64,000 bases of DNA from an uncultured Aquitalea sp. (GTDB lineage: Bacteria; Pseudomonadota; Gammaproteobacteria; Burkholderiales; Chromobacteriaceae): NCBI RefSeq assembly GCF_945957525.1, contig NZ_CAMFLA010000002.1, forward strand, positions 62,001 through 126,000, in the 5' to 3' direction. Below are positions 1,757 through 64,000 of the stretch, one piece after another (the stretch's first letter is position 1; every line of letters starts with the position of its first letter). Both the position numbers and the translations under genes were made by a program. The notes beneath the pieces were generated by a model, which was not told the origin of the DNA, ran no database searches, and saw only the letters and a list, made by a program, of their open reading frames with translations.

Positions 1757-2571
1757 GTCAGTTGGTGCCGGGTGAGGTTGAGCACTTGCGCGCTGGCGCC
1801 TACCGCAAAATTAGACAGCGCGCCGAAATCACCACCTTGATAGCCGACGATTTTGCCGTCGGTCTTGCCTTGCGCAAGATCGATCAGCACCACGCCCAGC
1901 GTGGGGATGATTTTCTCTCGCCAGACAAACAGGTACAGGGCTTCGGCCAACTTGATGTAGTGGCATCGATCCACGTCGGCCAGGCCTTGCTCTACGCCCT
2001 GCAGGCATTGCCAGGCATAAAAATTGTTGTTGAGGTAAACATGTTCGTAGCACTCGGTGCGGCTGTAGCGATACTGATTGCGCATGCCCACCAATTCGGT
2101 GGTGGCATGGTGCAAGGCGTCGTCTTGCGCCGGCGGGCGGCCAACCACGCCGTGGACGAAGTCGGCTTGCACGGCGGTCAGCTCCATGCCGCGCGCCACG
2201 CGGGTAAACGGGTCGATGCGGGTGTCAGCCTCGTCCGGCATGCGGCCGTCGACAAGGGTGAACAGCCCGCGCGCCGCATCCAGCACCACAGATACCGAGG
2301 CGCCAACCGGCGCGGGCGGCAGGAAATCGATCAGATAGATGCCCTCCCGCAAACTGGTGACGCGGCTGTCGGCCTCCAGCGGCGCCGAACCCGGCGCGGT
2401 CCAGCAGAGCTAGTCATTGCTCAGCAGTTGCAGCCGATAGCATTCGCCGCCTTCGGCAAACAGCTCAAAGGCGCGGCCGGTCAGCTCGTGACGGGCAGGC
2501 AAGGTGTTGTTGTCCGGGGCGAAGCCATCAGCCAGCGCGCCTACCTGAATGAAAACAGGTTGTTGGGTCAT
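1753..2571 (-). pseudogene. moaF: moaF-like gene split by an in-frame amber codon
   Basis: The N-terminal part (start ATG at 2571, MTQQPVFIQVGALADGF) and the C-terminal part (REGIYLIDF to the stop at 1753) resemble MoaF, a two-domain protein named for molybdenum-cofactor genes though its reaction is not established. Both parts are in the same frame and are separated only by one TAG at 2410-2412. The residues after the TAG (LCWTAPGS...) continue plausibly as MoaF sequence, so there is no frameshift. It is either a recent nonsense mutation, a sequencing error or amber readthrough. The downstream SDR overlaps the end by 4 bases. One copy of the GTTGGCCGAA motif (minus strand, 1942-1951) lies inside. 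Confidence 0.75.
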
Positions 2572-2943
2572 GTGCGGGTCTCCTTGTGTGCGAAAGCGCG
2601 TCCGCCGCTGCAAGGCGGGCAGGGCAACAAGCGCTGCCAGCACTGTATGCGTCGCCGCCGGGCCGGCCCATCGTCCGGAGGGATGAGGCCGGTTTGCCGG
2701 ATTGCGACCCGTGTTTGCGGCGGCGCGGCGTGGGCGTTGCCAAGTCATCGGATGATTCATACAATGCCGCCGCTCATGGCGTAGTGCGCCCGCCGCTTGC
2801 GGCGAGCGAGTCAGAATGGAATATCCCGACGCCGCCTCGGTGCAGGCGCGCATCCCGACGGACCTCGGTCCCCGCTGTCGCCCGAGCCGCCCGGTCTTGC
2901 CGGTGCGGTCGCTTCCCCACAAGTCATCCTGAATGAGAAAAAA
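2572..2943. other. Divergent intergenic region, moaF / bmp
   Basis: 372 bases between the divergent moaF and bmp starts. No credible gene was seen. It is GC-rich with several short inverted repeats and must hold both promoters, which I could not place with confidence. Confidence 0.5.
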
Positions 2944-3986: not shown

Positions 3987-3996
3987 GTTGGCCGAA
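3987..3996 (+). repeat. GTTGGCCGAA motif, intergenic copy
   Basis: Exact copy of the 10-mer found 18 times in the window, here between the bmp stop and a terminator hairpin. Confidence 0.8.
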
Positions 3997-5097: not shown

Positions 5098-5880
5098 TCA
5101 GGGCTTTGTTGGTGGGTCCTGGTCGGCAGCCCCATCGGCTGGAGACAGCCAGCCTTCGGCCAACGTTGCTTCCCAAGCGAAACGGCGCACGATGCCGGCA
5201 AAGTCGCCGTCCAGCGGCGCGCGCAGGGTGAGGCGTTCGCCGCTGTAAGGATGGGTGAACGCGGTTTCCACGCAAGCCAGCAGCATGCGCCGGCTGTCCA
5301 GATGCTCGGCAAAGTAGCGATTGTGCACGCCCTTGCCGTAGGTGGCATCGCCGATGATGGGGTGGGCGATGTGCTTGAGATGCCGGCGCAACTGGTGGCG
5401 GCGGCCGGTAAGCGGGCTCAGCGCCATCAGCGCGTAACGACTGGCGGGGTAGCGGTCCACCATGACCGGCAACTCCACGTTCGCCAGCGTGCGGTAGTCG
5501 GTCACGGCCGACTGCGCTTCGGCGCCGGCTCTGTCGCCTCGCCATTCGCGGTCGTCGCGTTGGCGGGTGAGCGCGTGGTCGATGCGACCTGCCGCCGGCG
5601 GATGGCCGCGAACCACCGCCAGGTAGGTCTTGTCGATTTTCTGTTGCTCGAATAGGGCACCCATTTCGCGGGCCGCATCCTTGTCCAGCGCAAAAAGCAA
5701 GATGCCCGACGTGCCCTTGTCCAGCCGGTGGGCGGCGTAAACGTGTTGCCCGATCTGGTCGCGCAGCATTTGCACGGCGAAGCGGGTTTCGTGGCGGTCG
5801 ATTTCGGAGCGGTGCACCAAAAGCCCTGCGGGCTTGTGGATGGCGATCAGCCGCTCGTCGCGGTAAAGAATGGGCAGCAT
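5098..5880 (-). CDS. truC: tRNA pseudouridine(65) synthase TruC
   Basis: 260-residue RluA-family pseudouridine synthase, the same length as E. coli TruC, which makes pseudouridine 65 in tRNA-Ile and tRNA-Asp. It starts at MLPILYRDERLIAIHKPAG. The catalytic Asp is in AHRLDKGTSG, and the late motif TGRRHQLRRHLKHIAHPIIGD matches TruC rather than RluC or RluD. A C-terminal tail rich in Asp and Pro varies in the family. One GTTGGCCGAA motif (minus strand, 5155-5164) lies near the 3' end. Confidence 0.9.
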   Translation of the reverse strand: MLPILYRDERLIAIHKPAGLLVHRSEIDRHETRFAVQMLRDQIGQHVYAAHRLDKGTSGILLFALDKDAAREMGALFEQQKIDKTYLAVVRGHPPAAGRIDHALTRQRDDREWRGDRAGAEAQSAVTDYRTLANVELPVMVDRYPASRYALMALSPLTGRRHQLRRHLKHIAHPIIGDATYGKGVHNRYFAEHLDSRRMLLACVETAFTHPYSGERLTLRAPLDGDFAGIVRRFAWEATLAEGWLSPADGAADQDPPTKP

Positions 5881-12037: not shown

Positions 12038-12047
12038 TTCGGCCAAC
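12038..12047 (-). repeat. GTTGGCCGAA motif, intergenic copy
   Basis: Exact minus-strand copy, 12 bases after the stop of the SWIM-like gene. No hairpin is formed here. Confidence 0.8.
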
Positions 12048-13848: not shown

Positions 13849-14157
13849 ATGAAAGCCATGATCATAGGCGGCGACAAAGTGGACACCACTCGTCGCGCTT
13901 TGCTGGAATCCGGTTTCGCCGACATCGTTCACTGGACGGGCCGGAAAACCAACGACCTGCGCCGTCAGGTGCCGGGCGATATCGACCACATCGTCATCAT
14001 GCTGGACTACTGCAATCACAATCTCGCCAAGCGCATGCGCGATGTGGCGCGCGAGCAGCGCATCGGTCTGTCCTATGTTGGCCGAAGGCAGCAGGCGGAC
14101 CGCGCCGGCAGCGGCGCCGTGCTGAAGGGGGCGCTGGGCGTGCTGTCCGCGCATTGA
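13849..14157 (+). CDS. DUF2325 domain-containing protein
   Basis: 102 residues with a good ribosome site (AGAGGGCGAGCGAC before ATG). The sequence MKAMIIGGDKVD, then GFADIVHWTGRK and HIVIMLDYCNHNLAKRMR match the small DUF2325 family, common in Neisseriales and of unknown function. Tyr, Cys and His cluster in LDYCNHNL. A GTTGGCCGAA motif lies within (14077-14086). Confidence 0.85.
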   Translation: MKAMIIGGDKVDTTRRALLESGFADIVHWTGRKTNDLRRQVPGDIDHIVIMLDYCNHNLAKRMRDVAREQRIGLSYVGRRQQADRAGSGAVLKGALGVLSAH

Positions 14158-14573: not shown

Positions 14574-15362
14574 TTACAGCGCCCAGTGCAGACGGGCGAA
14601 TTCGATATCGCGTTCTGGCGCGGGGGCAGGGGTTTCGCCGGCGAGCGGGCCTTGCAGCACGCGTTGCAGCAGGTAGTGTTCCAGCCGGACAAAATCGGGG
14701 TGAGAGCTGTTGCGTTGGCGGGGGAGATCCACCGGCAGATCTACCGCCACCTTGCCGTTTTCCAGCAGGATCACCCGGTCGGCCAGTGTGACGGCCTCGC
14801 TGACATCGTGGGTCACCAGCACGGCGGTGCCGCCGTGCGATAGCCATAGCGACTCGATCAGCGCCTGCATTTCCAGCCGCGTCAGCGCGTCCAGCGCGCC
14901 CAGCGGTTCGTCCAGCAACAGCAATTGCGGCTGATGCACCAGGGCGCGCGCCAGCGCGACGCGCTGGCGCTGACCGCCGGACAGGCGGCTGGGCCATTCG
15001 TGGGCGCGCTCTTCCAGCCCCACCTCGCGCAAGGCGTCCAGCGCCTGTGCGATGGAATCGGCCGGCAAGCCCAGCGCCACGTTCTGCAGTACGGTTTTCC
15101 AGGGTAGCAGTCGCGAATCCTGGAACATCAGCCGGGTGCGCGCTGCGCCAGGCGCATGCAACTGGCCGCCATCGGCCCGGTCCAGCCCGGCCAGCAGTCG
15201 CAGCAGTGTGCTTTTGCCGCAGCCGGAGCGGCCGACGATGGCGACGAACTGGCCTTGCGGAATATGCAGGTTGATGGCTTGCAGCACCTGACGTTGGCCG
15301 AAGCGGCGGTCGACGTTGCTCAGACGGATATCCTTGTCCAGCGGACGGTCATCGGGTTTCAT
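14574..15362 (-). CDS. ssuB: Aliphatic sulfonate ABC transporter ATP-binding protein SsuB
   Basis: 262 residues. Walker [10 protein letters not shown], signature [15 protein letters not shown], Walker [13 protein letters not shown] and switch His in LVTHDVSEA. It starts at the ATG at 15362 ([10 protein letters not shown]), 13 bases after the ssuC stop. It is the ATPase of the sulfonate importer with SsuC and SsuA. Confidence 0.93.
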
Positions 15363-18304: not shown

Positions 18305-18892
18305 TTACAGGCTGATGCGGCTGATAACGTGACGGGTGTCAGCATCGCGGCGCGCGCGCGGCGGGGTAAGCGGCAGCTGTTCGATGAAGTCCTGAGCCGC
18401 CTGAGTCAGGCGCAGGTCCAGTTCTTCGGCCAACAGCGCCTCGCCGCCATCGCCTTTGCCGATTTGCGAATCGATGGCAAACACACCCTGATGAATGTCG
18501 CTGGCCTTGAGCGCCGCCAGCACCGGTTTGATGGCGTAGTCCACGGCCAGTAGGTGGCCGGGAGACCCGCCGCTGGCCAGCGGCAGCACGGGCTTGCCGG
18601 CGAAGCCGCCTTCGGGGATCAGATCCAACATCACTTTCAGTGCGCCGGCATAGGCGGCCTTGTAGACCGGGCTGGCAATGATGATGCCGTCTGCGGCTTT
18701 CACCTTCTGCTGGAAATCTTGTACGGTAGGATGGGCAAAGTCGGCGTAGATCAGCGCATCCGGCGGGAAATCGTAAATCGTCACCAGTCGGGTTTCGATG
18801 TCTTGCTCTTGCAGCAGGCCGCTTACCTTATCGATCAGCTTCGCAGTCCTTGACTGACGGCTGGGGCTGCCGGAGATGGCCAGTACTTTCAT
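18305..18892 (-). CDS. ssuE: NAD(P)H-dependent FMN reductase SsuE
   Basis: 195 residues, flavodoxin-like fold: AISGSPSRQSRTAKL at the N terminus, then IIIASPVYKAAYAGALK and PLASGGSPGHLLAVDYA, all SsuE hallmarks. First gene of ssuEADCBF; its upstream gap of about 240 bases to the divergent cyclase gene must hold the sulfur-regulated promoter, though I could not place a Cbl or CysB site. A GTTGGCCGAA motif (18425-18434, minus) lies near the 3' end. Confidence 0.92.
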   Translation of the reverse strand: MKVLAISGSPSRQSRTAKLIDKVSGLLQEQDIETRLVTIYDFPPDALIYADFAHPTVQDFQQKVKAADGIIIASPVYKAAYAGALKVMLDLIPEGGFAGKPVLPLASGGSPGHLLAVDYAIKPVLAALKASDIHQGVFAIDSQIGKGDGGEALLAEELDLRLTQAAQDFIEQLPLTPPRARRDADTRHVISRISL

Positions 18893-19133: not shown

Positions 19134-20306
19134 ATGATGAAACCCGACATGCCAACTCTGCTGCTATCGCTGATGGTGACCAGCGGCGTGCTGGCGATCG
19201 CGGTGCTGGCGGTGGCGCTGAGAACCCGCACCCATCGCGGCTTGCTGACCTGGGGTATCGGCCTGCTGTTCAACGCACTGTCCTACCCGGCCTTTGGCCT
19301 GCGTACCGTCGGCTTGCTGAAAATCTCCATTCTTTCGGCCAACGTGCTTACTGCGCTGACAATGTCGCTGCACGCTATCGCCATCTCCAGCTTTCAACGA
19401 CACCGGGCCAATCCGCCGCGGTTTTCCCTCATGTACGGCCTGGCGGTAGCCAATGCCTTGTTGGCCTGGTGGTTCATGGACAATGACTACTGGCGCAACC
19501 TCTCGGTGTCGGCGACGCAAAGCGGCCTCGCCTTGTTCCTGTTGTGCCAGAGCTTTGCGCCCGGTCTGCGGGAGCCGCGCGTCACCGGGCGCTGGGTGGT
19601 AATCACAGGTTGCATCATTCTGGTGACGGTCTTTGCCGTCAGAACCGGCATGATGTTGGGCAACGGCAATTGGGTTCCCTATTTCAGTGTGCCGATGAAC
19701 GTGCAGATCATCTCCTATCTGGCGGTGTTGACCGTGCTGCTGCTCAATACCATGGGTTTCGTGCTGATGCAGATGGAACACGCGCTTTCACAGCAACAGG
19801 CGCTGGCCACGCACGACGCCCTGACCGGCGTGTTCAACCGGGCCGCCTTGATGGATGCCCTCAAGCTGGCTGGGGCGCGAGCGCGAAGAGAGCAAAAGCC
19901 GCTCGCCATCCTGATGATCGACCTGGATCGCTTCAAGGATGTGAACGACAATCATGGCCACCTGACTGGCGACCGGGTATTGCGCGACGTTGCCGGCCGC
20001 ATTGCCGATCGCCTGCGCGGCTCCGACATCCTGGCGCGCTACGGCGGAGAGGAGTTCATTGCAGTGCTGCCGGATACCGATGGCGAGGGCGCGCTGGCGG
20101 TGGCCAATGACATCCTGCGAGAAGTGCGGGAAAGACCGGTGCGGGTGGAGCAGCAGACCATCCCGGTGACGGTGAGCCTTGGCGTCAGCGCGATTACGCC
20201 TGGTGCAGGCGAAGCGGAACTGGATTTTGAAGAGCTGATCGCCCGTAGCGACAGCGCCATGTATGCGGCCAAGCGCGGCGGACGCAATCGCATTGTGTTG
20301 GTTTGA
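19134..20306 (+). CDS. Membrane-bound diguanylate cyclase (GGDEF)
   Basis: About 390 residues from the ATG at 19134; no ribosome site marks the start, and an earlier TTG at 19080 is possible. Roughly six to seven transmembrane helices fill the N-terminal 230 residues, then a GGDEF domain (THDALTGVFNRAALMDALK, IDLDRFKDVND). The active-site motif is intact as GGEEF, and an RxxD inhibitory site (RGSD) sits five residues before it, so an active c-di-GMP synthase with product feedback is expected. The membrane part resembles a MASE-type sensor, with unknown signal. A motif copy lies at 19334-19343. Confidence 0.88.
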   Translation: MMKPDMPTLLLSLMVTSGVLAIAVLAVALRTRTHRGLLTWGIGLLFNALSYPAFGLRTVGLLKISILSANVLTALTMSLHAIAISSFQRHRANPPRFSLMYGLAVANALLAWWFMDNDYWRNLSVSATQSGLALFLLCQSFAPGLREPRVTGRWVVITGCIILVTVFAVRTGMMLGNGNWVPYFSVPMNVQIISYLAVLTVLLLNTMGFVLMQMEHALSQQQALATHDALTGVFNRAALMDALKLAGARARREQKPLAILMIDLDRFKDVNDNHGHLTGDRVLRDVAGRIADRLRGSDILARYGGEEFIAVLPDTDGEGALAVANDILREVRERPVRVEQQTIPVTVSLGVSAITPGAGEAELDFEELIARSDSAMYAAKRGGRNRIVLV

Positions 20307-20354
20307 GTTGCGCATGGACGGCAACGCGTCTAAGGGCCTGCGCCGGCAGCCATC

Positions 20355-20385
20355 AAACGCCCTGACTGCAGGGCGTTTTGTTTTT
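20355..20385 (+). terminator. Terminator of the diguanylate cyclase gene
   Basis: Stem AAACGCCCTG / CAGGGCGTTT, 4-nt loop, then TGTTTTT. Confidence 0.88.
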
Positions 20386-20519
20386 CCAGGTGAAATCCAG
20401 GTTGGAGCTGGCATAAAGACATGAGCTTTGATCTTGTCGCTACAGCTGGCGATGTTGGGCGGTTTACCATGAGTTGTTCGGTAATTTCCCTTTAGAGATT
20501 AGAGAAAAGGAGGGTGGCA

Positions 20520-20693
20520 ATGAGACCTTTCCTGAAACCCATCTGCATCGTGGCCAGCATGTTGCTGTTAGGGTCCGCGTCCCCTGGTCCGGCGGTTTCC
20601 CATCAGTTACAAACGAACATCGGGCCGGAAGCCGCCAGGCAGCCCCATGTCCTGAAGCAACTCAAAAGGCTGACCCCGGCGCGGGTGCGATGA
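20520..20693 (+). CDS. Small putative secreted peptide, unknown
   Basis: 57 residues. It is chosen because a near-perfect Shine-Dalgarno (AAAGGAGGG) sits 7 bases before the ATG. The N terminus looks like a signal peptide (MRPFLKPICIVASMLLLGSA), leaving a short basic mature part (HVLKQLKRLTPARVR at the end). Base composition is like the core genome. The stop overlaps the next small ORF by 4 bases, and a terminator follows both. I recognise no family; it may be a genuine small gene or a truncated one. Confidence 0.45.
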   Translation: MRPFLKPICIVASMLLLGSASPGPAVSHQLQTNIGPEAARQPHVLKQLKRLTPARVR

Positions 20694-20827
20694 GCCTGGC
20701 GGAGTTCTGGCTGGCCGAAAGGTGGGTTGCGGCTTGTTTCCACCAGCGGCTACCTCCTGTGTGGTCTACCTTGAGGAGGCATAACCGTTTCATTCCTTCG
20801 TTTGTTCTCTCCAAGTCGAGCCCTTGA
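20690..20827 (+). CDS. Small ORF coupled to the peptide gene, unknown
   Basis: 45 residues beginning MSLAEFWLAERWVAACFHQR, overlapping the previous stop as ATGA. It ends exactly where a terminator hairpin begins. Rich in Trp, Arg and Phe; no recognisable family. Support is the coupling and the terminator only. Confidence 0.3.
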   Translation: MSLAEFWLAERWVAACFHQRLPPVWSTLRRHNRFIPSFVLSKSSP

Positions 20828-20857
20828 ACCCGTCCATGGTGGGATGGGTTCTTTTTT
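20827..20857 (+). terminator. Terminator after the small gene pair
   Basis: Stem AACCCGTCC / GGATGGGTT (one G-T pair), 6-nt loop, followed by CTTTTTT. Confidence 0.75.
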
Positions 20858-21002
20858 CCTGTGGTCTTCCGGTCGTAACCTGCTACGTGGCCCTCACCCC
20901 AAGCTAGTGACAGTCATTCTGCTGGCGTCGCAGGCTTATCAATGTTGTCAGTGATCGGTGTTGGTCAGCACTTAATCTCCTCCGCCGTATTGCTGCCCAT
21001 GT

Positions 21003-21263
21003 CTAGTAAGGGCGCGCTTCAGACGAGGAGGGGCGGTGGGTGGTTACGGACGAGCGCGCATCAAGCGTCGACGTCCCTTGCTTGGCGCATGGCAAATCAG
21101 CCTGGCGGCAAAAACAGGGCTTCAGGCAGATAGAATGGAGGGTGTGGAGATGGGCAAAGATGCCTCCAACAACCACGAGGCAGGTCAGTGTTGCGAAAAT
21201 TATTGACAAATCAAGGACATGTGGTGATAATGGCTCTTCCTCTTCAGGGTGGCTCAGCTGCAA
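21003..21263 (-). CDS. Possible small membrane protein, weak
   Basis: 86-codon frame starting at a TTG, with an acidic N terminus (HPEEEEPLSPH) followed by one hydrophobic segment (IIFATLTCLVVVGGIFA) and a Cys-rich tail. It overlaps a good promoter on the other strand. No family recognised; it may be spurious. Confidence 0.22.
   Translation of the reverse strand: MQLSHPEEEEPLSPHVLDLSIIFATLTCLVVVGGIFAHLHTLHSICLKPCFCRQADLPCAKQGTSTLDARSSVTTHRPSSSEARPY
21203..21231 (+). promoter_or_regulatory. Sigma-70 promoter upstream of the infA relic
   Basis: TTGACA at 21203-21208 and GATAAT at 21226-21231 with 17-base spacing, close to consensus. The next rightward coding sequence is the infA relic. Confidence 0.65.
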
Positions 21264-21378
21264 GCTACCTGCCTCGCCTTGGTTGCTGTCGTGTCGTACA
21301 GCATTTTTCGATCTGGTCTACAAAGTCATCAAAGATTCCAATGTGCGTTTGAGCATTTTGGGTGCTGTCTTTTCCCGT

Positions 21379-21643
21379 ATGACTGCCTTGTCAAATGAAG
21401 ATATGATCAAGCTGGAGGGTGTTGTTGTCGGAATGCTGCCGGAATCCCGCTTCGCGTTCGGCTTGATAACAATACCGAGGCACTGGCTTATGGCTCTGGC
21501 AAGATGAAGCCGCGCCGTGTTCGTGTGACTGAGAGGGTCTTGTTGCTGAAATGTTGCCATATGATTTTGCCACGGGGCGGGTCAATTTATGGTATTCAAC
21601 AGCCAAACAAATACAACCTACGGCAAAATGTAGTAGGCATTAA
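21379..21643 (+). pseudogene. infA: infA (translation initiation factor IF-1) relic with a one-base deletion
   Basis: From the ATG at 21379 one frame reads NEDMIKLEGVVVGMLPESRF. It then loses homology, and the other frame continues RVRLDNNTEALAYGSGKMK, then RRVRVTERV, then EMLPYDFATGRVNL. Together they match IF-1 end to end (OB fold, RVxLDN, SGKMxxxRxRV, PYDxxxGR). The frames join at about 21453, where one base appears to be missing. The 3' end is approximate. Many betaproteobacteria carry a second infA beside a csp gene, as here. It is a pseudogene unless the deletion is a sequencing error. Confidence 0.8.
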
Positions 21644-21679
21644 TAGCTGCGCATGATAAGCGGGCTGTAAGGAAAATAA

Positions 21680-21859
21680 TTGAAAGTAAGTGAGTTGAAA
21701 ATGGGTGATAAAATCACTCAGTGTATAGAGAATTCTATAATTGCATTTGAAGTAATGGCGGTTAAGCAAATTGGTCGTCGTTTCGTGGTTACCTTTAATT
21801 CTGCTTTTGGCACTGAAACCGCAAGTTATCAAGGTGATGCCTGTATCCCTACGGCGTAA
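21680..21859 (+). CDS. Small orphan protein, unknown
   Basis: 59 residues from a TTG with AAGGA 6 bases upstream (MKVSELKMGDKITQ), or 52 from the ATG at 21701. The composition is AT-rich, unlike the core. A perfect terminator starts 4 bases after the stop, which supports real transcription ending here. The sequence (IAFEVMAVKQIGRRFVVTFN) suggests a small beta-rich domain; I recognise no family. Confidence 0.45.
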   Translation: MKVSELKMGDKITQCIENSIIAFEVMAVKQIGRRFVVTFNSAFGTETASYQGDACIPTA

Positions 21860-21862
21860 AGC

Positions 21863-21890
21863 AAAAACCTGCCTTGTGGCAGGTTTTTAC
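21863..21890 (+). terminator. Terminator of the 59-residue gene
   Basis: Perfect 11-bp stem AAAAACCTGCC / GGCAGGTTTTT, loop TTGT. Confidence 0.88.
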
Positions 21891-21904
21891 TAACAAATCA
21901 TATC

Positions 21905-21938
21905 CAATAAAAAAGCCCCGTTTGGGGCTTTTTTATTG
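21905..21938. terminator. Terminator of csp (bidirectional)
   Basis: Perfect 15-bp stem CAATAAAAAAGCCCC / GGGGCTTTTTTATTG, 4-nt loop; T runs on both strands. It closes the leftward csp gene. Confidence 0.9.
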
Positions 21939-21950
21939 CCAGCGAATTGC

Positions 21951-22154: not shown

Positions 22155-22294
22155 GATGGACTCCATGAATTGATTAACGGCAATGTGAATGCCAAACAGC
22201 ATGATAGTCAAGGAATAGATATGGAAACAAAGCAGACCAACAGGGTGGGCAACGAGGCATCAATAGATATGGCACTTGAAAATCTTGCTACACC

Positions 22295-23578: not shown

Positions 23579-23640
23579 CTAGCATAAAAAATTATCCCTG
23601 CATGATTATTTATAGGCCGCATAGCGTTTTTAAGAGAAAT

Positions 23641-24078: not shown

Positions 24079-24126
24079 GATATCTCCTGCAATAAAATTA
24101 CTGCCTCACCGCATAGGCAGCAGAAT

Positions 24127-35479: not shown

Positions 35480-35798
35480 TACCCTCTCCGACACATTCAT
35501 GAATGGGACTGCCGTTTCGCGCCAAGAAGTTTGTCTTCGCGCCGTCGCGACAGCAGTCGCCGCAAAAGCGTCAATACTACCGCAAAACCCTCTTTCTGCC
35601 GACTCTTAGGCTGTGGCGCTTTACGCTTGTTAACCGCTTGGCCATTGTCTGAGCGGGGCGATCTGGTCCAAACTGACGGTTTCATCTGAATATCGCCAAT
35701 GCCAGCCCATTCGCGTGTTGCCCTTAGCGGCGTGCGCGCTCGGTTTTGCATGGCGCCTTGTTGGCGAAGTGATTCATCTTGTATGCGAGGTTGGCCGA
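35480..35798. other. Divergent intergenic region, tyrS / cytochrome b561
   Basis: About 320 bases with no credible gene. It must hold the leftward tyrS promoter and the rightward cytochrome promoter; neither could be placed. Confidence 0.4.
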
Positions 35799-35799
35799 A
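35790..35799 (+). repeat. GTTGGCCGAA motif overlapping a start codon
   Basis: The last A of the motif is the first base of the ATG of the cytochrome b561 gene, so the motif lies between the ribosome site and the start. Confidence 0.8.
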
Positions 35800-38094: not shown

Positions 38095-39008
38095 AAAAAA
38101 CCATCGTCAACCTGTTTACCGGTTTTCTGGGCGTGGGCAAGACCACGGCCCTGCGCCACTTGATCGCCAATCGCCCGGTCAATGAGAAATGGGCGGTCAT
38201 CGTCAATGAGTTTGGCGAGGTGGGCATAGACGGCGCGGCCCTGATGAACGACGAACTGCCGGTGGCGGAAATCGCCGGTGGCTGTCTGTGCTGCGTGGCC
38301 GGCCCGCAAATGACCGCTACCGTGGCCACCCTGTTGCGCCGCGAGCGGCCGGACCGTCTGTTGATCGAGGCCAGCGGCCTTGCGCATGCCGCCGGCGTTA
38401 TCGATGAGCTTCGCACGCCGCCGCTGGGCGATGCTTTGGAAGTGGGCGCGGTGCTGACGCTGGTGGACCCGCGCCAGTTTGTCAACCCGGATTATCTGCG
38501 TCAGCCATTGTACCGCGATCAGGTGGCCATTGCCGATGTGCTAGTGGCCAACAAGGTGGACATGGCCGATATGGAGACGCTGCAGGCCTTCCGCGAACAG
38601 GCGGGCAAGCTGTTTCCGCCCAAGTCGAGAGTGGCGGAAGTGCTGAATGGCCAACTGCAGGCGGACTGGCTGAATGACGCAGTCACCCTCAAGCCGCGCT
38701 ACCGCCCGGCCGTGCCGGTGGATGCCGCCAGTCAGTGGGATTCACAAGGCTGGACCTTCCCGCCGGAGCAATCCTTCAGCGGTGAGGCCTTAACGCAGTT
38801 TTTTGATGGTTTGCCGAAGGCGGTGCCGGGGTTGGTGCGAGCCAAGGGCGTGTTTCGCGTGCTGGATACCTGGGTGTGGCTCAACTGGGCTGAGGGTCAG
38901 TGGGGTGCCAATCAGGTGTCCTGGCGGCGTGACAGCCGTTTCGAGCTGATTGCCGGCGCTTTTGACGCCGAAGCCATCGAGCGCGAACTTCAGGCCTGCT
39001 TCGAGTAA
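38091..39008 (+). CDS. COG0523 G3E GTPase, putative zinc chaperone
   Basis: 305 residues from the ATG at 38091. CobW-like GTPase: Walker A LGVGKTTALRH, metal motif CLCC in AGGCLCCVAG, NKVD in VANKVDMAD. A CobW C-terminal domain follows. Position in a Zur-regulated operon points to the zinc-allocating (ZigA/ZagA type) subgroup rather than cobalamin or nitrile hydratase maturation. Confidence 0.88.
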   Translation: MKKTIVNLFTGFLGVGKTTALRHLIANRPVNEKWAVIVNEFGEVGIDGAALMNDELPVAEIAGGCLCCVAGPQMTATVATLLRRERPDRLLIEASGLAHAAGVIDELRTPPLGDALEVGAVLTLVDPRQFVNPDYLRQPLYRDQVAIADVLVANKVDMADMETLQAFREQAGKLFPPKSRVAEVLNGQLQADWLNDAVTLKPRYRPAVPVDAASQWDSQGWTFPPEQSFSGEALTQFFDGLPKAVPGLVRAKGVFRVLDTWVWLNWAEGQWGANQVSWRRDSRFELIAGAFDAEAIERELQACFE

Positions 39009-46414: not shown

Positions 46415-47356
46415 TCAGGCCTTGCCTTGTTTGACGATGCTCATGGCGGTGGCCACCAGCGAACTGACGTCGGCGGCATTGGCCGGCAGCAGAATGGTGT
46501 TGCCTTCCTTCGCCAGTTGGCCGAAGGCCGCCACATATTGTTCCGCCACCTTCAGGTTGACGGCTTCGAGACCACCGTCCTGCTTCACGGCCCCCGCCAC
46601 GCGGGCGATGGCGTCGGCGGTGGCGTCGGCCACCAGTCGCAGGGCTTCGGCTTCGCCCTGCGCCTTGTTGATGGCGGCCTGGCGCGAGCCTTCGGAGTTA
46701 TTGATGGTGGCCTGCATTTCCCCCTGGGATTTCTGGATGGCCGCCTCGCGCGCGCCGGTTGCCAGGTTGATCTGCTCCATCTTAAGACCTTCGGACTGGG
46801 CGATGCGGGCGCGTTTTTCCCGTTCGGCGGTGATCTGCGCCTGCATGGCGTGCAGGATGTCTTGTGGCGGCACCAGATCCTTGATTTCGTAGCGCAGCAC
46901 TTTCACGCCCCAATTGATGGCGGCTTCGTCCAGCGCGGCCACCACCGTCTGGTTGATTTCATCGCGCTCTTCGAAGGTTTTGTCCAGCTCCATCTTGCCG
47001 ATGACCGAGCGCAAGGTGGTTTGGGCCAGCTGGGTGATGGCAATAATGTAGTCGCTGGTGCCGTAGGAGGCGCGCTGGGGGTCGGTAATCTGGAAGTAGA
47101 GGATGCCGTCCACTTTCAGTTGGGTGTTGTCGCGCGTGATGCAGATCTGGCTGGGCACATCCAGCGGGATTTCCTTCAGGCTGTGGCGATAGGCCAAGCG
47201 GTCGACAAAGGGGATGATGATGTTCAGGCCGGGCGTCAGGGTGGCGTGATAACGGCCAAGACGCTCAATGATGAAGGCGTGCTGTTGCGGTACCACCTTG
47301 ACCGATTTGATGATGAAGACAAGGACGGCAAGAAAGAGAATAAGGGCGAATTCCAT
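46415..47356 (-). CDS. qmcA: SPFH/stomatin-like protein (QmcA, paraslipin)
   Basis: 313 residues: N-terminal membrane helix (ALILFLAVLVFIIKSV), SPFH domain (VPQQHAFIIERLGRYH, TLTPGLNIIIPFVDR), then a long Ala/Glu-rich coiled coil. It forms membrane scaffolds and pairs with the NfeD protein encoded just upstream. A GTTGGCCGAA motif lies at 46517-46526. Confidence 0.93.
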   Translation of the reverse strand: MEFALILFLAVLVFIIKSVKVVPQQHAFIIERLGRYHATLTPGLNIIIPFVDRLAYRHSLKEIPLDVPSQICITRDNTQLKVDGILYFQITDPQRASYGTSDYIIAITQLAQTTLRSVIGKMELDKTFEERDEINQTVVAALDEAAINWGVKVLRYEIKDLVPPQDILHAMQAQITAEREKRARIAQSEGLKMEQINLATGAREAAIQKSQGEMQATINNSEGSRQAAINKAQGEAEALRLVADATADAIARVAGAVKQDGGLEAVNLKVAEQYVAAFGQLAKEGNTILLPANAADVSSLVATAMSIVKQGKA

Positions 47357-49769: not shown

Positions 49770-49784
49770 GCCTGTCCTGCCTGA

Positions 49785-49825
49785 CAAAAGGTTGGCCGAA
49801 GCAATCGCTTCGGCCAACCTTTTTG
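49785..49825 (+). terminator. Terminator built from an inverted pair of the GTTGGCCGAA motif
   Basis: Stem AAAAGGTTGGCCGAAGC (to 49802) with GCTTCGGCCAACCTTTT, 4-nt loop AATC, then T-rich sequence. Both arms carry one full motif copy (49791-49800 plus, 49809-49818 minus). This is the arrangement used by Neisseria uptake-sequence terminators. Confidence 0.92.
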
Positions 49826-49884
49826 TTTTGCGCAAGCGGCTTGCTTGTGGCTTCTCCGGCAGCCTGCGCCAGTCCGGTGAAGGT

Positions 49885-50680: not shown

Positions 50681-51364
50681 GTGCAGTCCGTGTTAGTAGC
50701 CAACCCCAAGGGGGGCAGCGGCAAATCTACTTTGGCGACTAATCTCGCCGGGTACTTTGCCAGTTCCGGCCGCAAGGTCATGTTGGGCGACGTTGATCGT
50801 CAACAATCCTCACTCAGGTGGTTGGCCGAAAGAGACGCGGCCTTGCCGCCCATCGTTGGCTGGGAGATAGAGCCCGGCGCGCCGGCCAAACCGCCCAAGG
50901 GCACCGAGATGGTGATTCTCGACAGCGGGGCTGGTTTGCACGGCAAAAAGCTGGCGGCGCTGGTGTCCCGTGTGGAGCGCATTCTGGTGCCGATTCAGCC
51001 GTCTCCCTTCGACATGTGGGCGAGCGGAGAGTTTTTCGAGCAGCTGCTGGCGGAAAAGGCCGTGCGCAAGAACAAGGTTTTCATGGCGGTAGTGGGCATG
51101 CGGGTGGATCCGCGCACCCGCTCGGCCAAGGAGCTGGAACGTTTTCTTGAAAGTCACGATGTGCCGGTGCTCAGTTGGCTGCGCGACACTCAGCTGTATG
51201 TGCAGGCTGCCGCCAACGGTATGACCCTGTTTGATTTGCCCGCCTCCCGCACGGCCAAGGATCGCGAGGCCTGGAAGCCCATTTTGCACTGGTTGGGCGA
51301 GCCGGCCGCCACAGCCGTCGCGGCAGATTCCGGCAAAGACCCGGAGTGTTGGTTTGATAAATAA
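50681..51364 (+). CDS. ParA/MinD-family ATPase (orphan)
   Basis: 227 residues from a GTG. Deviant Walker A KGGSGKSTLATN, then a shortened switch region GDVDRQQSSLRWLAERD and LDSGAGLHGKKL. It lacks a neighbouring parB or DNA-binding gene. Such short orphan ParA-like proteins position cargo such as chemoreceptors, pili or polysaccharide machinery. A chemoreceptor lies 1.3 kb downstream, which is suggestive only. A motif copy lies at 50821-50830. Confidence 0.85.
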   Translation: MQSVLVANPKGGSGKSTLATNLAGYFASSGRKVMLGDVDRQQSSLRWLAERDAALPPIVGWEIEPGAPAKPPKGTEMVILDSGAGLHGKKLAALVSRVERILVPIQPSPFDMWASGEFFEQLLAEKAVRKNKVFMAVVGMRVDPRTRSAKELERFLESHDVPVLSWLRDTQLYVQAAANGMTLFDLPASRTAKDREAWKPILHWLGEPAATAVAADSGKDPECWFDK

Positions 51365-52667: not shown

Positions 52668-54278
52668 ATGAAGATCAATCTGCCTGTCACCACTACAGAG
52701 CGCATGGTCGACCCGGTCAATCCCATCGTTACCAAAACCGATGTGAAGGGCGCCATTACCTATGCCAACCGGGCCTTCATCGACATCAGCGGCTTCGAAG
52801 AGGCGGAGCTGCTGGGCAAAAACCATAATATCGTGCGCCATCCGGACATGCCGCCAGAGGCTTTCGCCGATTTGTGGGACACCATCAAAACTGGCAAACC
52901 ATGGCGCGGGCTGGTGAAAAATCGCGCCAAGAACGGCGATTTTTATTGGGTGGAGGCTTATGTTACCCCGATCAGCGAGCATGGTCGCATTGTGGGCTAC
53001 ATGTCGGTGCGATCCGCACCGGAACGTGCCGAAGTCCAGGGGGCGGAGGCGCTTTACGCTGCCATTCGCGACAAGCGCGCCACTGTGCCGTCAACGCTGA
53101 AAAGCTATGCCAGTCGTTCGGATGTGCTGAAGATCGCCCCTTGGCTGGCTGGCGCCGGCAGCGTGCTGGCGATGGGCGCGCTGTTCTTGCCCGATACCAT
53201 GCAGCCGTTGCGCGAGATTGTCGGCATGGCTGGCAGTGCGCTGGCGCTGGGTGCCGGTGTTTGGGGCTGGGTGCGGGTGTGTAAGGCCATGCATGTGCTG
53301 AATGACCGGTTTCTGGATTTGCGGGAAGGCCGGCTGGACCATGCCGTGCTGGTGCGAGAGGGCGGCTTGATTGGCCAGGTGTTGGCCTCGCTGGAAGCGA
53401 TGCGCATTCATTTTCGTGCCACCATCGCCGATGTGATTCGCGCCGGCGGCGAAACCCACAAGCAAGCGGAGGCGCTCCGCATTGACATGCATTCTCTGGC
53501 GGTGCGCACGGGAGAGCAGCGTCACGGGCTGGATCAGATCAGCGTCAATATGGAGTCGCTCAGCATTGCAGTGCAAGAAGTGGTGAAGTTGGCCGAACGC
53601 AACCTGCAAGACTCCGCCGCCACTCAGCGTGTGGCGCAGGAGGGTAGGGAAACCATGAATGCCGCCACGCATGCGGCAGAGCGCGCGGTGGGAGTGGTCA
53701 CCGAATCGCGCAATGCGATGGCCGAACTGGACGAAGCGATGAGTCGCATCCGCACCATGACCACGCTGATTCGTGAAATCGCCGATCAGACCAATCTGCT
53801 GGCGCTCAACGCCGCTATCGAAGCGGCCCGGGCCGGTGAGATGGGGCGCGGCTTTGCCGTGGTGGCGGACGAAGTGCGCAAGTTGGCCGAACGCACTACC
53901 AACACCACGGACTCCATTGGCGGCATCGTGGCGGAAATCGGCCGCATCACCCAGACCGCGGTGGGCAGCATGGATGCTACGGTGACCGAGGTGGGCGAGG
54001 TGAATGGTCAGATCGGCCTGTCTTCGGCCAACCTGCAGGGGCTGATCGAAGCCGCGCAGTCTTCCAGCCGACAGGCGGAAGAACTGGCGCAGGAGATGAG
54101 CAGCAAGTCCGACTCCATCAATGTGATGGCTGCCGCGCTTGAGCAACTGAACGCCCTGTCGGAACAAAATCAGGAAACCACTCACTCCGTGGGCGAGAGC
54201 GCACGTCATTTGGCGGATACGGCGCTGGATCTGGAGCATCTCACGGAAGATTTCCGCAAGTGGAGCACGCGCAACTGA
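52668..54278 (+). CDS. Aer-like chemoreceptor (PAS + membrane hairpin + MCP)
   Basis: 536 residues. PAS domain (about 20-125) with the Aer-type [19 protein letters not shown] and [18 protein letters not shown]; two helices (about 160-205) forming a membrane hairpin; then an MCP signalling domain with tip [20 protein letters not shown]. Probably senses redox state through FAD, as Aer does. Three motif copies fall inside, two of them encoding KLAER. Confidence 0.92.
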
Positions 54279-57431: not shown

Positions 57432-58508
57432 TCAGCGTCTTTCCTGTTTGAGGATGATGGCGATGCCGGCAAAGAGGAAAATCAGGGTCGGCAGGGTGGC
57501 GGACAGTACGGCGTTCCAGCTGTAGAGCAGCCCGAGGTGTCCGAACAGACGGTTGACGAAGTGAAAGCCGACGCCAAGGCAAATGCCGGAGAACAGGCGA
57601 ACGCCAAGCTGGCCATGCCGGCGCTGCTGTGGCGTGAACGCCAGCGCCACCAGCGCCATGGAAACGCAGGCCAGCGGATAAAACAGTTTGCTCCACAGGG
57701 CGATGTCGTAGCGCTGGGTTTGCTGTTTGTTGGCTTTAAGGTGGTCGATGTACTTGATCAGGCTGAGTGCGGACATTTGCTCCGGCACCACCAGCAGCAC
57801 ATTGAGAATGTCCGGCTCGATGATGGATTTCCACTCGTAATGATCGCGGCGCGCGCTTTCCATCCGATCGGCATAGAGATGGGTTTCCTTGACGTTGTCC
57901 AGCTTCCAGGTTTTGGTGTCGCGGTTGAAAACGCCGCGTTCGGCCAACCTTGTCTGCGTCAGGGTAAAGCTCTCGTCGTAGGTATAGATGCGCACGCCCA
58001 GCAGGGTGCTGTCGGGTAGCATCTCATGCACATTGATGATGTTGTTGTTGTCCTTCACCCAGATGCCGGAGCGGAACTCTTGCGCCACCATGGAGTGCAT
58101 AGCGGACAGCTTCATGCGCTCGGCCTGTTGCAGGGTGTAAGGGCTGACGAACTCGCCCAGTGTGATGGTCAATGCGGCAAAGCCGGTGCCGAAAATCAGC
58201 AGGGTGCGGGCAATCTGCCACAGCGTGATGCCGCAGGTGCGGATAACAGTGTATTCGCTGCTGGTGGCCAGTTGGGTCATGGCCACCATGCCGCCGATCA
58301 GCACAGCCAGCGGCATCAGTTCATAGGCATGCGCCGGGGCCTGCAGCAGGATGTAACCCAGCATTTTGCTGATGTTGTAGCTGCCCTGGTTGAGGTCAGG
58401 CACTTCGCGAATGATGTCGAAGAAGCCGTACAGGCCCAGTAGCGCGGCAAGGGTGAACAGGGTGGACTGGCTGAGCGCGCTGATGATGTAGCGATAGATC
58501 AGTTTCAT
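57432..58508 (-). CDS. lptG: LPS export permease LptG
   Basis: 358 residues, YjgP/YjgQ family: MKLIYRYIISALSQSTLFTLAALL, three N-terminal and three C-terminal helices flanking a periplasmic jellyroll domain. Works with LptF and LptB to move LPS from the inner membrane. It overlaps lptF by 4 bases. A motif copy lies at 57939-57948. Confidence 0.94.
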   Translation of the reverse strand: MKLIYRYIISALSQSTLFTLAALLGLYGFFDIIREVPDLNQGSYNISKMLGYILLQAPAHAYELMPLAVLIGGMVAMTQLATSSEYTVIRTCGITLWQIARTLLIFGTGFAALTITLGEFVSPYTLQQAERMKLSAMHSMVAQEFRSGIWVKDNNNIINVHEMLPDSTLLGVRIYTYDESFTLTQTRLAERGVFNRDTKTWKLDNVKETHLYADRMESARRDHYEWKSIIEPDILNVLLVVPEQMSALSLIKYIDHLKANKQQTQRYDIALWSKLFYPLACVSMALVALAFTPQQRRHGQLGVRLFSGICLGVGFHFVNRLFGHLGLLYSWNAVLSATLPTLIFLFAGIAIILKQERR

Positions 58509-61791: not shown

Positions 61792-61793
61792 CC

Positions 61794-64000
61794 ATGACCG
61801 AGTCGCCCAAGCCTGATCTGCCTTCCTGGGACGATCTGGACCTCCCCGTGCTGAGCGATGTGGTGGACGAGACGCACGTCCCCACGTTGAGCGAAGAGGC
61901 TCTGGATGTGCCCGAGTTTGACTTCTCCAGCGAGCTGGATGCCCTGCAGCAAAGCGTTGCCGTGCCTGAAACCGGCATGGCTGAGCTGGAAATCCCCGAA
62001 CTGACGCTGGAAGATCTGGATGTCAGTCCGCCGTCGCCGGGCGCGCTCGATCTGGGCACCTTGCCCTCACTGGACCTTTCCGTGCCGGTGGCCGGTGAGC
62101 TGACCCTGGACGATGTGCTGCCGGACCTGGGCAAGCCCGTGCGGGCGGAGCCTCCCGCAACGGCGCTGTTTCAGCCGCCCGCGCCGGTAGCGATTGCACA
62201 GTCGCTGCCGGAAATGCCGGCGGTGGCGGTAGATGGTTTTGAATTCACGTTGGACGAAGAGCCTGGGCAGACGGACTCCTTCGCCGGCATGCAAGTTAGC
62301 TGGGACGCGCCCGCTGAGCCTGCTGCTGCCGCGCCGGTAGAGTTGGTGCATCATGTGGCCGGCGAATCCAATGTGGCGGACGGCCTGGATCAGTTGCTTT
62401 CCAGCCTCAACGCGCTGCAAGGCGATGTGCCGCCGGAGGAGGCGGTAAATCACTTGCTGGCCGACGCGGAGCCTGGCGATGCTGTTTGGCCTGCACCGGA
62501 TAATGTCTTGTCGCTGCCGCATGTTGAGGCAAGCCATGAGGCGGCGCACGAGCTGGCCTCTGCCGGTTTTGCCGCGGAGATGCCTGAGGCTGCGGCCTCT
62601 ACGCCGGAAGAGGCATTGCCTGTCTTGTCGCTTGAGGCGCACGAGGCGGAATCAGTATTGCCGCCTCAAGCCGCGGCAGGCGAGCCGCCGGAGGTCGTGG
62701 CAGGGCGCCAGCCCGCCGCCGAAACCGCGCAGCTTGTGCCGGAAAGTCATGCCTTTTCGGAGTCTCACGCCGTTGCCGGCGACTTGCCGACGCTGGAGCA
62801 TGCTTTTGATGCCGGCGTTTCGGATATGCCCGCAGCCATCGAGCATATCTCCTTGGACAGTCTGCCCACCGGTGTGCTTGGCGGTGGTTTGGGACTGGCC
62901 GCGGCATACGAGGCGGAAGCGCCCACGTCCGCCGAGCCGGTGCTGCATCACCCGCTGGACGAGGTGCTGCGTGCTGCTGAGGCGACGTTGGCCGAAGAGC
63001 GGAAGGGTATGACACCCGTCCCCGCGGTCGATGCGCCAGATGAAGATGAATGGACGCCGGCCAGTGAGGTGGATCACCAAAGCGAAACCGAAGACCCTTT
63101 GCAAGAAGGCCTGCCGCAAACTGGTCTGGAGCGTCGCGTACCGGATAGCCTGAGTGCGCCGTCGCCGCAACTATTGCATCCGCCTCATCTGGATGCGGCT
63201 GCGCCTGTCGCGGAGGAGATGCGCGCCAGCGAGGAGTGGCCTGCCGCGCATGAAGTGGGGCGTGAAAACGAGGCTGAGACAGAAGCCGAGGCTGCGCCGC
63301 CTGCTCCCGTGTCGATGCAAGTGGATACCTTGTTTGGCGAATCGCCTTTCGCTAGCGAGCGTGCGGCTGCCTTGCAGGCGTCAAGCCCACTTGAGCCTGA
63401 GCATGCCTTGCCGGTTGCCGCAACACCGGATGCGTTACCGGTACTGAGCGAGGAACCGGCGCTGGACGCTGCCGTAGAGCTTGTGCCGCAAGACGCACCG
63501 GCTGAGGTTGAGGCACCGGCCACCCCGCAAGCCATGTTGGCCGAAATCGATGAGCCCGAGCCGCAAGCCTTGCCGATACTGACTGAAGAGGCGGCAAGCG
63601 ACCATGTGGACGAGCCGTTTGCGCTGGAGGCAGGTGTGCTGGCCGGGGGCGCGATGGCGCTGGCGGCAGCTGGCGTGGCCCAGGTGGCTGGTCAGGACGC
63701 TGTTGTGCAAACGGATACGGCGCGCAAGGGTGTTTCCGTGCTGAGCGTTTCCGCTATGAGTTCCCAAGCGACTTCAGCGCAGATGATGCAGCCGCAGTCG
63801 CAGGATCACACCATTGCAGTGGTGGACGAAAAGGCGCTGGTGGATGCCATGTATGAAAAACTGCTGCCGCGCATGAAGGTGGAGCTGACATTGTGGTTGC
63901 AGGACGCGCTGGAAATGCAGGCCAAGAGCATGCTGTCCGGCGTGATGCAGCAGCTCAAGGAAGATTACGACATGTTGTTTGGCGACACGCTGCGGGAGAG
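61794..64000 (+). CDS. Large acidic low-complexity protein (3' end beyond window)
   Basis: At least 735 codons, open from the ATG at 61794, two bases after holC, to the window edge. It is dominated by Glu, Ala, Pro, Leu and Val, with repeated short acidic phrases (LTLDDVL, EEALPVLS, LPVLSEEP, LPILTEEA), no signal peptide at the start and a short hydrophobic Ala/Gly stretch near residue 620. The last visible part looks folded and helical (ALVDAMYEKLLPRMKVELTLW). I recognise no family; it is reminiscent of FimV-like or scaffold proteins only in composition. Two GTTGGCCGAA copies encode LAE here. Confidence 0.7.
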   Translation, partial: MTESPKPDLPSWDDLDLPVLSDVVDETHVPTLSEEALDVPEFDFSSELDALQQSVAVPETGMAELEIPELTLEDLDVSPPSPGALDLGTLPSLDLSVPVAGELTLDDVLPDLGKPVRAEPPATALFQPPAPVAIAQSLPEMPAVAVDGFEFTLDEEPGQTDSFAGMQVSWDAPAEPAAAAPVELVHHVAGESNVADGLDQLLSSLNALQGDVPPEEAVNHLLADAEPGDAVWPAPDNVLSLPHVEASHEAAHELASAGFAAEMPEAAASTPEEALPVLSLEAHEAESVLPPQAAAGEPPEVVAGRQPAAETAQLVPESHAFSESHAVAGDLPTLEHAFDAGVSDMPAAIEHISLDSLPTGVLGGGLGLAAAYEAEAPTSAEPVLHHPLDEVLRAAEATLAEERKGMTPVPAVDAPDEDEWTPASEVDHQSETEDPLQEGLPQTGLERRVPDSLSAPSPQLLHPPHLDAAAPVAEEMRASEEWPAAHEVGRENEAETEAEAAPPAPVSMQVDTLFGESPFASERAAALQASSPLEPEHALPVAATPDALPVLSEEPALDAAVELVPQDAPAEVEAPATPQAMLAEIDEPEPQALPILTEEAASDHVDEPFALEAGVLAGGAMALAAAGVAQVAGQDAVVQTDTARKGVSVLSVSAMSSQATSAQMMQPQSQDHTIAVVDEKALVDAMYEKLLPRMKVELTLWLQDALEMQAKSMLSGVMQQLKEDYDMLFGDTLRE

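What the first reader, a model, noticed from the sequence alone, without database searches (positions are those of the whole stretch)
1942..63545. GTTGGCCGAA: a candidate DNA uptake-type genome signature
The 10-mer occurs 18 times: plus strand at 3987, 14077, 35790, 46517, 49791, 50821, 53588, 53882, 62987 and 63536; minus strand at 1942, 5155, 12038, 18425, 19334, 49809, 54023 and 57939. For random sequence about 0.1 copy is expected on both strands of 64 kb. Every copy of the 9-mer TTGGCCGAA found is preceded by G. Strands are balanced (10 to 8), copies fall in unrelated genes in different frames as well as in gaps, and one pair forms a terminator. That pattern fits an uptake sequence of the kind known in Neisseriaceae and Pasteurellaceae, and argues against strand-biased motifs such as Chi or KOPS. 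It lacks the CTG core of Neisseria DUS, and I know of no published description of this motif.
Basis: partly seen in the sequence, partly recalled or inferred. Interest (0 to 1): 0.88.

Follow-up and report, generated by a model that had tools for sequence, protein, structure and literature searches.

The report
DNA-uptake tag in Chromobacterium relatives
A 10-letter DNA tag sprinkled about 1,370 times through this bacterium's genome looks like a self-recognition label for taking up DNA, of a kind so far reported only in two other bacterial families, and sister genera carry one-letter dialects of it.

Summary
In detail: GTTGGCCGAA occurs 19 times in the window (0.23 expected) and 670+698 times in the 4.05-Mb genome (reversed control 21). 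It is strongly enriched in 8 of 61 genomes of its family. Sister genera carry one-letter dialects: GTTGGCCGCA in g10, GTTGGCCGAG in g4. Outside the family, among 386 genomes drawn from the order, no count exceeds 47 for AA or 52 for CA. Copies sit in genes on both strands and in gaps, exceed a synonymous-codon expectation about 19-fold, form some terminator-like inverted pairs, and are absent from a GC-poor fimbrial/transposase stretch. The genome encodes ComEC and a ComP orthologue whose only PDB matches are the three ComP entries. Best reading: an uptake-sequence system with ComP as receptor, in a family next to Neisseriaceae (inferred: Chromobacteriaceae). The 12-mer AGGTTGGCCGAA matches two neisserial dialects at 9 of 12 positions but has CCG where published dialects have CTG; its ComP lacks the C-terminal extension of Neisseria-type ComPs. 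Uptake is untested. A 2025 paper names Neisseriaceae and Pasteurellaceae as the only families known to do this (passage).

The parts
1942..1951 (-). GTTGGCCGAA copy, in gene 1753-2352(-), sense, Leu-Ala-Glu frame
3987..3996 (+). GTTGGCCGAA copy, not in a called gene
5155..5164 (-). GTTGGCCGAA copy, in gene, sense
12038..12047 (-). GTTGGCCGAA copy, not in a called gene
14077..14086 (+). GTTGGCCGAA copy, in gene, sense, frame 0
15293..15302 (+).
18425..18434 (-). GTTGGCCGAA copy, in gene, sense
19334..19343 (-). GTTGGCCGAA copy, antisense in a gene
35790..35799 (+). GTTGGCCGAA copy, overlapping the called start of a gene
46516..46525 (+). GTTGGCCGAA copy, antisense in a gene
49791..49800 (+). 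GTTGGCCGAA copy, left arm of the terminator-like hairpin
49809..49818 (-). GTTGGCCGAA copy, right arm of the terminator-like hairpin
49783..49827 (+). inverted motif pair plus U-run between convergent genes: terminator-like hairpin
50821..50830 (+). GTTGGCCGAA copy, overlapping the called start of a gene
53588..53597 (+). GTTGGCCGAA copy, in gene 52668-54278(+), sense
53882..53891 (+). GTTGGCCGAA copy, same gene, sense
54023..54032 (-). GTTGGCCGAA copy, same gene, antisense
57939..57948 (-). GTTGGCCGAA copy, in gene, sense
62987..62996 (+). GTTGGCCGAA copy, not in a called gene
63536..63545 (+). GTTGGCCGAA copy, not in a called gene
2452..2461 (-). second variant GTTTGCCGAA
8572..8581 (+). second variant GTTTGCCGAA
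17629..17638 (-). second variant GTTTGCCGAA
34189..34198 (+). second variant GTTTGCCGAA, inside the stretch that has no GTTGGCCGAA, just past the 3' end of the tyrosyl-tRNA synthetase gene
38809..38818 (+). second variant GTTTGCCGAA
43826..43835 (-). second variant GTTTGCCGAA
48527..48536 (+). second variant GTTTGCCGAA
60902..60911 (+). second variant GTTTGCCGAA
19344..35789 (.). 16.4-kb stretch without a GTTGGCCGAA copy, GC 0.526: chaperone-usher fimbrial operon and Mutator-family transposase, probably acquired DNA (inference)

Best explanation
GTTGGCCGAA (fuller form about A-G-GTTKGCCGAA-G) is a DNA uptake sequence. Inferred mechanism: during competence a type IV pilus carrying the minor pilin ComP binds duplex DNA that bears the motif, the pilus pulls it in, and ComEC passes one strand to the cytoplasm. 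DNA carrying the tag is taken up and recombined more often, so the tag accumulates on both strands throughout the genome, foreign islands lack it, and changes in ComP let the tag drift into dialects (AA, CA, AG at its last two letters). Shown here: abundance, dialects, lineage restriction, the ComP and ComEC genes. Inferred: binding, uptake, and ComP as the receptor.
For: Abundance and strand balance. 46 of 198 copies outside called genes; about 19-fold over synonymous-codon shuffles inside genes. Slightly even spacing, variance/mean 0.78 in 135 bins of 4 kb; no copy in the 5 bins below 55% GC, which include a fimbrial/transposase stretch. One-letter dialects: AA is the top 10-mer in stretches of G000, G036, G037, G044 and G045 and second in G047 (in the 20 kb of G035 only its 9-mer stands out); CA tops G059 and G056, AG tops G033; whole-genome counts. 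Among 399 genomes drawn from the order (13 of this family), the highest count outside the family is 52 for CA and 47 for AA. Inverted pairs in G000, 5 of 5 close pairs (window pair folds). G000 ComP: the only three PDB matches at E up to 10 are the ComP entries; Pfam ComP_DUS over its cut-off; last gene of a minor-pilin operon. A ComP profile from this family finds its top matches outside it in family f44, and 9 of 9 genomes of f44's genus g53 carry 247 to 4,285 copies of the neisserial DUS. ComP beta1-beta2 region 'N[TVA]D' in 16 of 17 motif-bearing genomes and 0 of 16 others. ComEC in 59 of 61.
Against: No uptake, binding or transformation data. ComP and ComEC are also present in genomes without the motif, so gene presence alone does not predict it; ComP was not found in the g3 stretches looked at. 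G044 carries the motif but not the N[TVA]D loop, and the loop contrast is confounded with ancestry. All 9 congeners of the window's genome lack the motif. Most in-gene copies are in one sense frame. A motif-free stretch of 17.9 kb with ordinary GC exists too. The AA count is mildly raised over its control in 5 of 9 g53 (Neisseria-type) genomes, 22-47 against 9-16, unexplained. PilQ, PilT, ComEA, DprA and ComM were not looked for. The structure of ComP could not be predicted.
Confidence: 0.82

Rival explanations
1. It is an uptake sequence, but the specific receptor is another pilin (for example the FimT/GspH-type pilin of the same operon, or the pilin leading the second minor-pilin operon at G000:C12) rather than ComP.
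For: ComP orthologues occur in motif-free genomes too. FimT-type pilins bind DNA in Legionella (recalled; FimT is compared with ComP in a passage of PMC12616744). The C12-type pilin scores above 190 bits in nine genomes, G000, G045-G048 and G050-G053, eight of them known to carry the motif (G052 was not counted for CA).
Against: The C12-type pilin stays below 70 bits in motif-rich G036, G037 and G044 and has no match to ComP structures. G035 and G036, with 579 and 2168 motif copies, show one minor-pilin operon, the one holding ComP, besides a major pilin and, in G036, a cluster that I read by eye as type II secretion pseudopilins. ComP is the known DUS receptor in Neisseriaceae (passages).
Confidence: 0.12
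2. The motif serves another chromosomal function (terminator arm, nucleoid or repair site, HIP1-like tag), unrelated to uptake.
For: Inverted pairs form terminator-like hairpins. No uptake data exist. Congeners that keep ComP and ComEC do without the motif.
Against: Only 5 close pairs among 198 copies. Strand balance 670/698 speaks against Chi- or KOPS-type polarity. One-letter dialects by genus and the ComP link are what an uptake system predicts.
Confidence: 0.05
3. Artefact of composition, codon pairs or a repeat family.
For: 95 of 152 in-gene copies encode Leu-Ala-Glu in one frame.
Against: 46 copies lie outside called genes and 47 are antisense. Flanks carry little shared sequence beyond about 3 bases on either side (at most 0.19 bits per position). 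The nine congeners have 11 to 36 copies.
Confidence: 0.01

Closest known systems
DNA uptake sequence (DUS) and ComP of Neisseriaceae (Frye et al. 2013, PMC3630211; passages read)
   Same: 10 to 12-mer, over a thousand copies, both strands, inverted pairs at terminators, dialects by lineage differing in one or few letters, ComP homologue. AGGTTGGCCGAA matches AG-mucDUS and AG-simDUS at 9 of 12 positions in register; random 12-mers reach 9 or more with p 0.006 to 0.008, allowing shifts up to 2 and both strands. -GAA and -GCA endings occur in both families.
   Different: CCG where the published dialects have CTG. ComP here lacks the C-terminal extension with extra cysteines seen in 9 of 9 g53 proteins, which I take to be the DD-region. 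A family in which the 2013 paper found no obvious DUS (Chromobacterium, Pseudogulbenkiania, Lutiella; also Laribacter) and no ComP in C. violaceum by BLAST; that the window's family is this one is my inference.
Uptake signal sequence (USS) of Pasteurellaceae
   Same: Abundant tag with two types, often as inverted repeats in terminators (passages of PMC12616744).
   Different: Unrelated core GCGG; predicted receptor is PpdA/ComN, not ComP.
HIP1, Chi, KOPS (recalled)
   Same: Over-represented short genomic motifs.
   Different: HIP1 is palindromic; Chi and KOPS are strand-polar (recalled); this motif is not palindromic and is balanced 670/698.

Membership tests
Neisserial DUS | Over-represented 10-12-mer, hundreds to thousands of copies on both strands | tested here: met
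   670 + 698 copies, control 21
Neisserial DUS | CTG at positions +6 to +8 and A at +10 in all dialects | tested here: not met
   CCG in all three dialects; the AG dialect also has G at +10
Neisserial DUS | Dialects differing by one or few bases between lineages | tested here: met
   AA, CA, AG endings
Neisserial DUS | Inverted pairs able to form terminators, in high numbers | tested here: inconclusive
   Present but few: 5 close pairs, all inverted, among 198 copies in 540 kb of G000; window pair folds. Close pairs in other genomes (9 in 100 kb of G059, 7 in 80 kb of G033) were counted without looking at orientation
Neisserial DUS | Enhances DNA binding, uptake and transformation | not testable with these tools
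   needs the bench
ComP | Sequence homology to ComP over the globular domain | tested here: met
   PDB 2m3k E 1.2e-10, 2nba, 5hz7 and nothing else; Pfam ComP_DUS 41.0 bits, cut-off 27.3. The g10 orthologue of G059 is below the cut-off, 22.7 bits
ComP | Two disulfides and a DD-region (PMC12061091, passages) | tested here: not met
   By sequence only: two invariant C-terminal cysteines; the C-terminal extension of the 9 g53 proteins is absent. It is also absent from the two other f44 proteins seen, G147 and G224
ComP | Sequence-specific binding to the genome's own motif | not testable with these tools
Pasteurellaceae USS | GCGG core | tested here: not met
   GTTGGCCGAA holds no GCGG on either strand

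The most novel reading that the evidence does not exclude
Uptake tagging by ComP is older than the split of Neisseriaceae and Chromobacteriaceae. The CTG core, taken as invariant, is the neisserial version of a wider C-Y-G core, and the ancestral system used a GTTGGCCGAA-like tag read by a ComP without DD-region. It has since been lost several times (for example in Chromobacterium and in most of the window's genus) and shifted into dialects through changes in ComP loops.
Probability: 0.45. Interest if true: 0.9.

Novelty: new variant of a known kind. Interest (0 to 1): 0.85.

Why it matters
Self-tagging of DNA for uptake has been reported from only two families (passage of PMC12616744), and the 2013 dialect paper dated DUS after the split from Chromobacterium (passage). 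A third family with three dialects, a related but shorter ComP, and near relatives that lack the tag while keeping ComP gives natural contrasts for how a receptor and thousands of genomic target sites change together. It also supplies receptors without the DD-region that is expected to give specificity in Neisseria (passage).

Tried and rejected
Receptor candidate G000:C12 (profile A1): looked good because of high scores in nine genomes, set aside because it is weak in G036, G037 and G044 and does not match ComP structures. Naming instead by inference: G028 contig 1 has 4,751,080 bases, which I recall as the size of C. violaceum ATCC 12472; PMC5985088 gives 4.75 Mb in one contig (passage); I did not find the exact figure in print (listings; 82, 83 passages). 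The exact-string search for the 10-mer found 29 papers, 20 listed, none about DNA uptake by its title; I opened none. K-mer counts in G002, G003, G005, G016, G024, G031, G038 and G041 (40 to 120 kb each) gave no 10-mer of comparable density.

ComP search: of 20 stretches fetched for it, 14 gave a ComP (the weakest G042, 85 bits); G013 and G015 gave none and G029, G030, G038, G049 only lower-scoring other pilins. These four and G219, G273, G282 were dropped before the tree. On that tree the AA ComPs are not one clade (5 changes), and long branches make several placements unsure.
Full report
OBSERVATION. All 19 copies of TTGGCCGAA are preceded by G. In the whole genome G000 (4,045,770 bases, 35 contigs; the window is C2:62001-126000) there are 670 forward and 698 reverse copies, and 9 + 12 of the reversed control. 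In 540 kb of this genome (window plus 24 stretches) I counted 198 copies where a third-order Markov model expects 2.05.

ANATOMY. Beyond the 10-mer, G follows in 80% of copies (T in 1%), A stands at -2 in 51% and G at -1 in 42%. Of the 30 one-mismatch variants only GTTTGCCGAA is strongly enriched (82 against 2.15); the next is 5.6-fold. With a simple gene caller of my own (480 genes, 80% of the bases), 46 of 198 copies are not inside a called gene, 105 are sense and 47 antisense; 95 are in one sense frame reading Leu-Ala-Glu. Shuffling synonymous codons gives 8.15 coding copies on average (largest 17 in 20 runs) against 152. An excess of one orientation in genes is also reported for DUS and USS (PMC2346458, passages). 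Spacing is slightly more even than random (variance/mean 0.78 in 135 bins of 4 kb); the 5 bins below 55% GC have no copy. Five pairs lie within 40 bases, all inverted. The window pair at 49791/49809 folds to -32.2 kcal/mol, z -7.7. The longest motif-free stretch of the window, 19344-35789, GC 0.526, holds a chaperone-usher fimbrial operon and a Mutator-family transposase, with a tyrosyl-tRNA synthetase gene towards its right end; one copy of the variant GTTTGCCGAA lies in it, at 34189. A longer motif-free stretch of ordinary GC exists elsewhere (17.9 kb at the edge of a fetched piece).

DISTRIBUTION AND DIALECTS. In the family (61 genomes, 10 genera) GTTGGCCGAA is strongly enriched in 8: G000 1368, G035 579, G036 2168, G037 1245, G044 1851, G045 1104, G046 183, G047 893; the two g4 genomes have 77 and 78, and the rest 8 to 62. 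The 9 congeners of G000 have 11 to 36. K-mer counts in fetched stretches showed that g10 uses GTTGGCCGCA (G059: 83 against 0.81 expected in 100 kb; G056: 59 against 0.54 in 80 kb) and g4 uses GTTGGCCGAG (G033: 59 against 0.72 in 80 kb). Whole-genome counts: CA 1871 to 2895 in the six g10 genomes drawn (the other seven were not counted whole); AG 1940 and 1590 in the two g4 genomes and at most 165 in the other 59. In 399 genomes drawn from the order (51 families, 13 genomes of this family), the highest count outside the family is 52 for CA and 47 for AA; AG was not counted order-wide. Two mild excesses are unexplained: AA and AG in G039 and G042 of g7, and AA in 5 of 9 g53 genomes, 22-47 against 9-16 for the control. 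Among 2.9 million viral contigs two hold the inverted AA pair (near records may be left out).

RECEPTOR. Pfam ComP_DUS matches pilins in 61 of 61 genomes, mostly several paralogues, so presence of that family alone says little. One orthologue group is ComP itself: the G036 protein's best matches are PDB 2nba, 2m3k and 5hz7, the G000 protein matches these three and nothing else at E up to 10, and a 19-row profile ranks them first, second and third. In G000 it lies at C9:75207-75596(+), last gene of a minor-pilin operon with GspH-type and PilX-type pilins, downstream of a gene that I recognise by eye as polA. The same profile searched over 399 genomes has its top matches outside the family in f44: 11 of 11 f44 genomes at 98 to 130 bits, with one f41 genome at 101 in between. 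Of these 11, the 9 of genus g53 have 247 to 4,285 copies of GCCGTCTGAA, the other two 2 and 4; 7 genomes of the window's family have 3 to 12. So f44 is Neisseriaceae (inferred) and carries the neighbouring ComP. ComEC is present in 59 of 61 (no match in G057 and in the 88%-complete G058).

COMP AND DIALECT. In 17 motif-bearing genomes 16 ComPs have N[TVA]D at the same place in the beta1-beta2 region (exception G044); none of 16 ComPs from genomes without the motif do. Motif-bearing here means a whole-genome count, except G056 (80-kb sample) and G054 (4 CA copies in 9 kb). The 16 were judged motif-free by AA and AG counts; CA was counted for five of them and k-mers for five, and one, G042, has the mild excess named above. 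The beta1-beta2 loop is one of two loops that contact DNA in published models of neisserial ComP (PMC12061091, passages); that this segment is that loop is my reading of the alignment. The contrast holds inside the window's genus: G000 ANTDAGKF against GNARADSF-type in 7 congeners, with which G000 ComP groups at support 98/95. All 8 CA ComPs end the next strand differently (7 LTQTG, 1 LLSTG) from the 2 AG ComPs ((D/N)ESGN) and the 7 AA ComPs ((D/N)QDGN); most motif-free ComPs also keep DQDG, and dialect is confounded with genus. The C-terminal extension with extra cysteines of the 9 g53 proteins is absent from these ComPs, and from those of G147 and G224 in f44.

RELATION TO DUS. AGGTTGGCCGAA, the form of 58 of the 198 copies, matches AG-mucDUS and AG-simDUS at 9 of 12 positions in the same register and strand. 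Random 12-mers reach 9 or more, over six dialects, both strands and shifts up to 2, with p 0.006 to 0.008 (dialect letters from passages, two of the eight dialects not used). The AG prefix was chosen after seeing the data. The published invariant CTG is CCG here. This favours shared descent over independent invention, without proving it.

NAMES. No tool named the family. Inference: f1 is Chromobacteriaceae, because G028 (g2) is a single contig of 4,751,080 bases (recalled as C. violaceum ATCC 12472; 4.75 Mb and one contig in PMC5985088, passage) and because its ComP is nearest to that of Neisseriaceae; the NCBI taxonomy puts Chromobacteriaceae in Neisseriales. If so, the ComP of G028 (Pfam 32.7 bits, cut-off 27.3; profile 158.9 bits) is one that BLAST missed in 2013, and the low motif counts in g2 agree with that paper.

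LITERATURE. Searches for the 10-mer (20 of 29 listed), for over-represented uptake sequences (40 of 113), for DUS with Chromobacteriaceae genera (15 of 80; 10 of 68), for uptake sequences in Betaproteobacteria (8 of 8) and for C. violaceum competence (12 of 79) listed no report of this motif by title and abstract start; the library lacks most subscription papers. [quoted passage not shown]

VERDICT. A real genome-wide tag with dialects, best explained as a ComP-linked uptake sequence in a third family. That it is an uptake sequence of some kind I put at about 0.93, with ComP as receptor at 0.82.

Noticed in passing
window 22919-31648: GC-poor, motif-free stretch with a chaperone-usher fimbrial operon (usher, PapD-type chaperone, FimA-type and tip-type fimbrial proteins), a TetR-type regulator and a Mutator-family transposase.
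   Followed up: partly
window 34500-35380: Part of the tyrosyl-tRNA synthetase gene is 77% identical in DNA to two N. gonorrhoeae records; these are records of 2.17 Mb, so chromosomes, held in the plasmid collection.
   Followed up: no
L033 6307-9642 (G000:C12): Second compact minor-pilin operon led by a PilE-like pilin; prepilin signals in similar order and spacing in G045, G047, G048, G059, G033, G031 and G016, no such cluster among the 18 prepilin signals of congener G003.
   Followed up: partly
G000 sample of 540 kb: Second variant GTTTGCCGAA enriched 38-fold (82 copies), not among the top 10-mers listed for the other AA genomes: possibly a shift in progress at position 4.
   Followed up: partly
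G038, L066-L070: Repeat family around AAGGTCTATGACGG (5 to 7 copies of its words in 100 kb, under 0.3 expected), unrelated to the uptake motif.
   Followed up: no
L039 9643-10600 (G044): Two adjacent ComP-like pilins; the ComP of this motif-rich genome lacks the N[TVA]D loop.
   Followed up: no
f41 genomes G184, G221, G254: ComP-profile matches of 94 to 101 bits in genomes with 0 to 3 copies of the neisserial DUS; their own over-represented motifs were not examined.
   Followed up: no
f44 g53 genomes G187, G257, G344, G372, G398: GTTGGCCGAA 22 to 47 times against 9 to 16 for the reversed control in Neisseria-type genomes; cause unknown.
   Followed up: no
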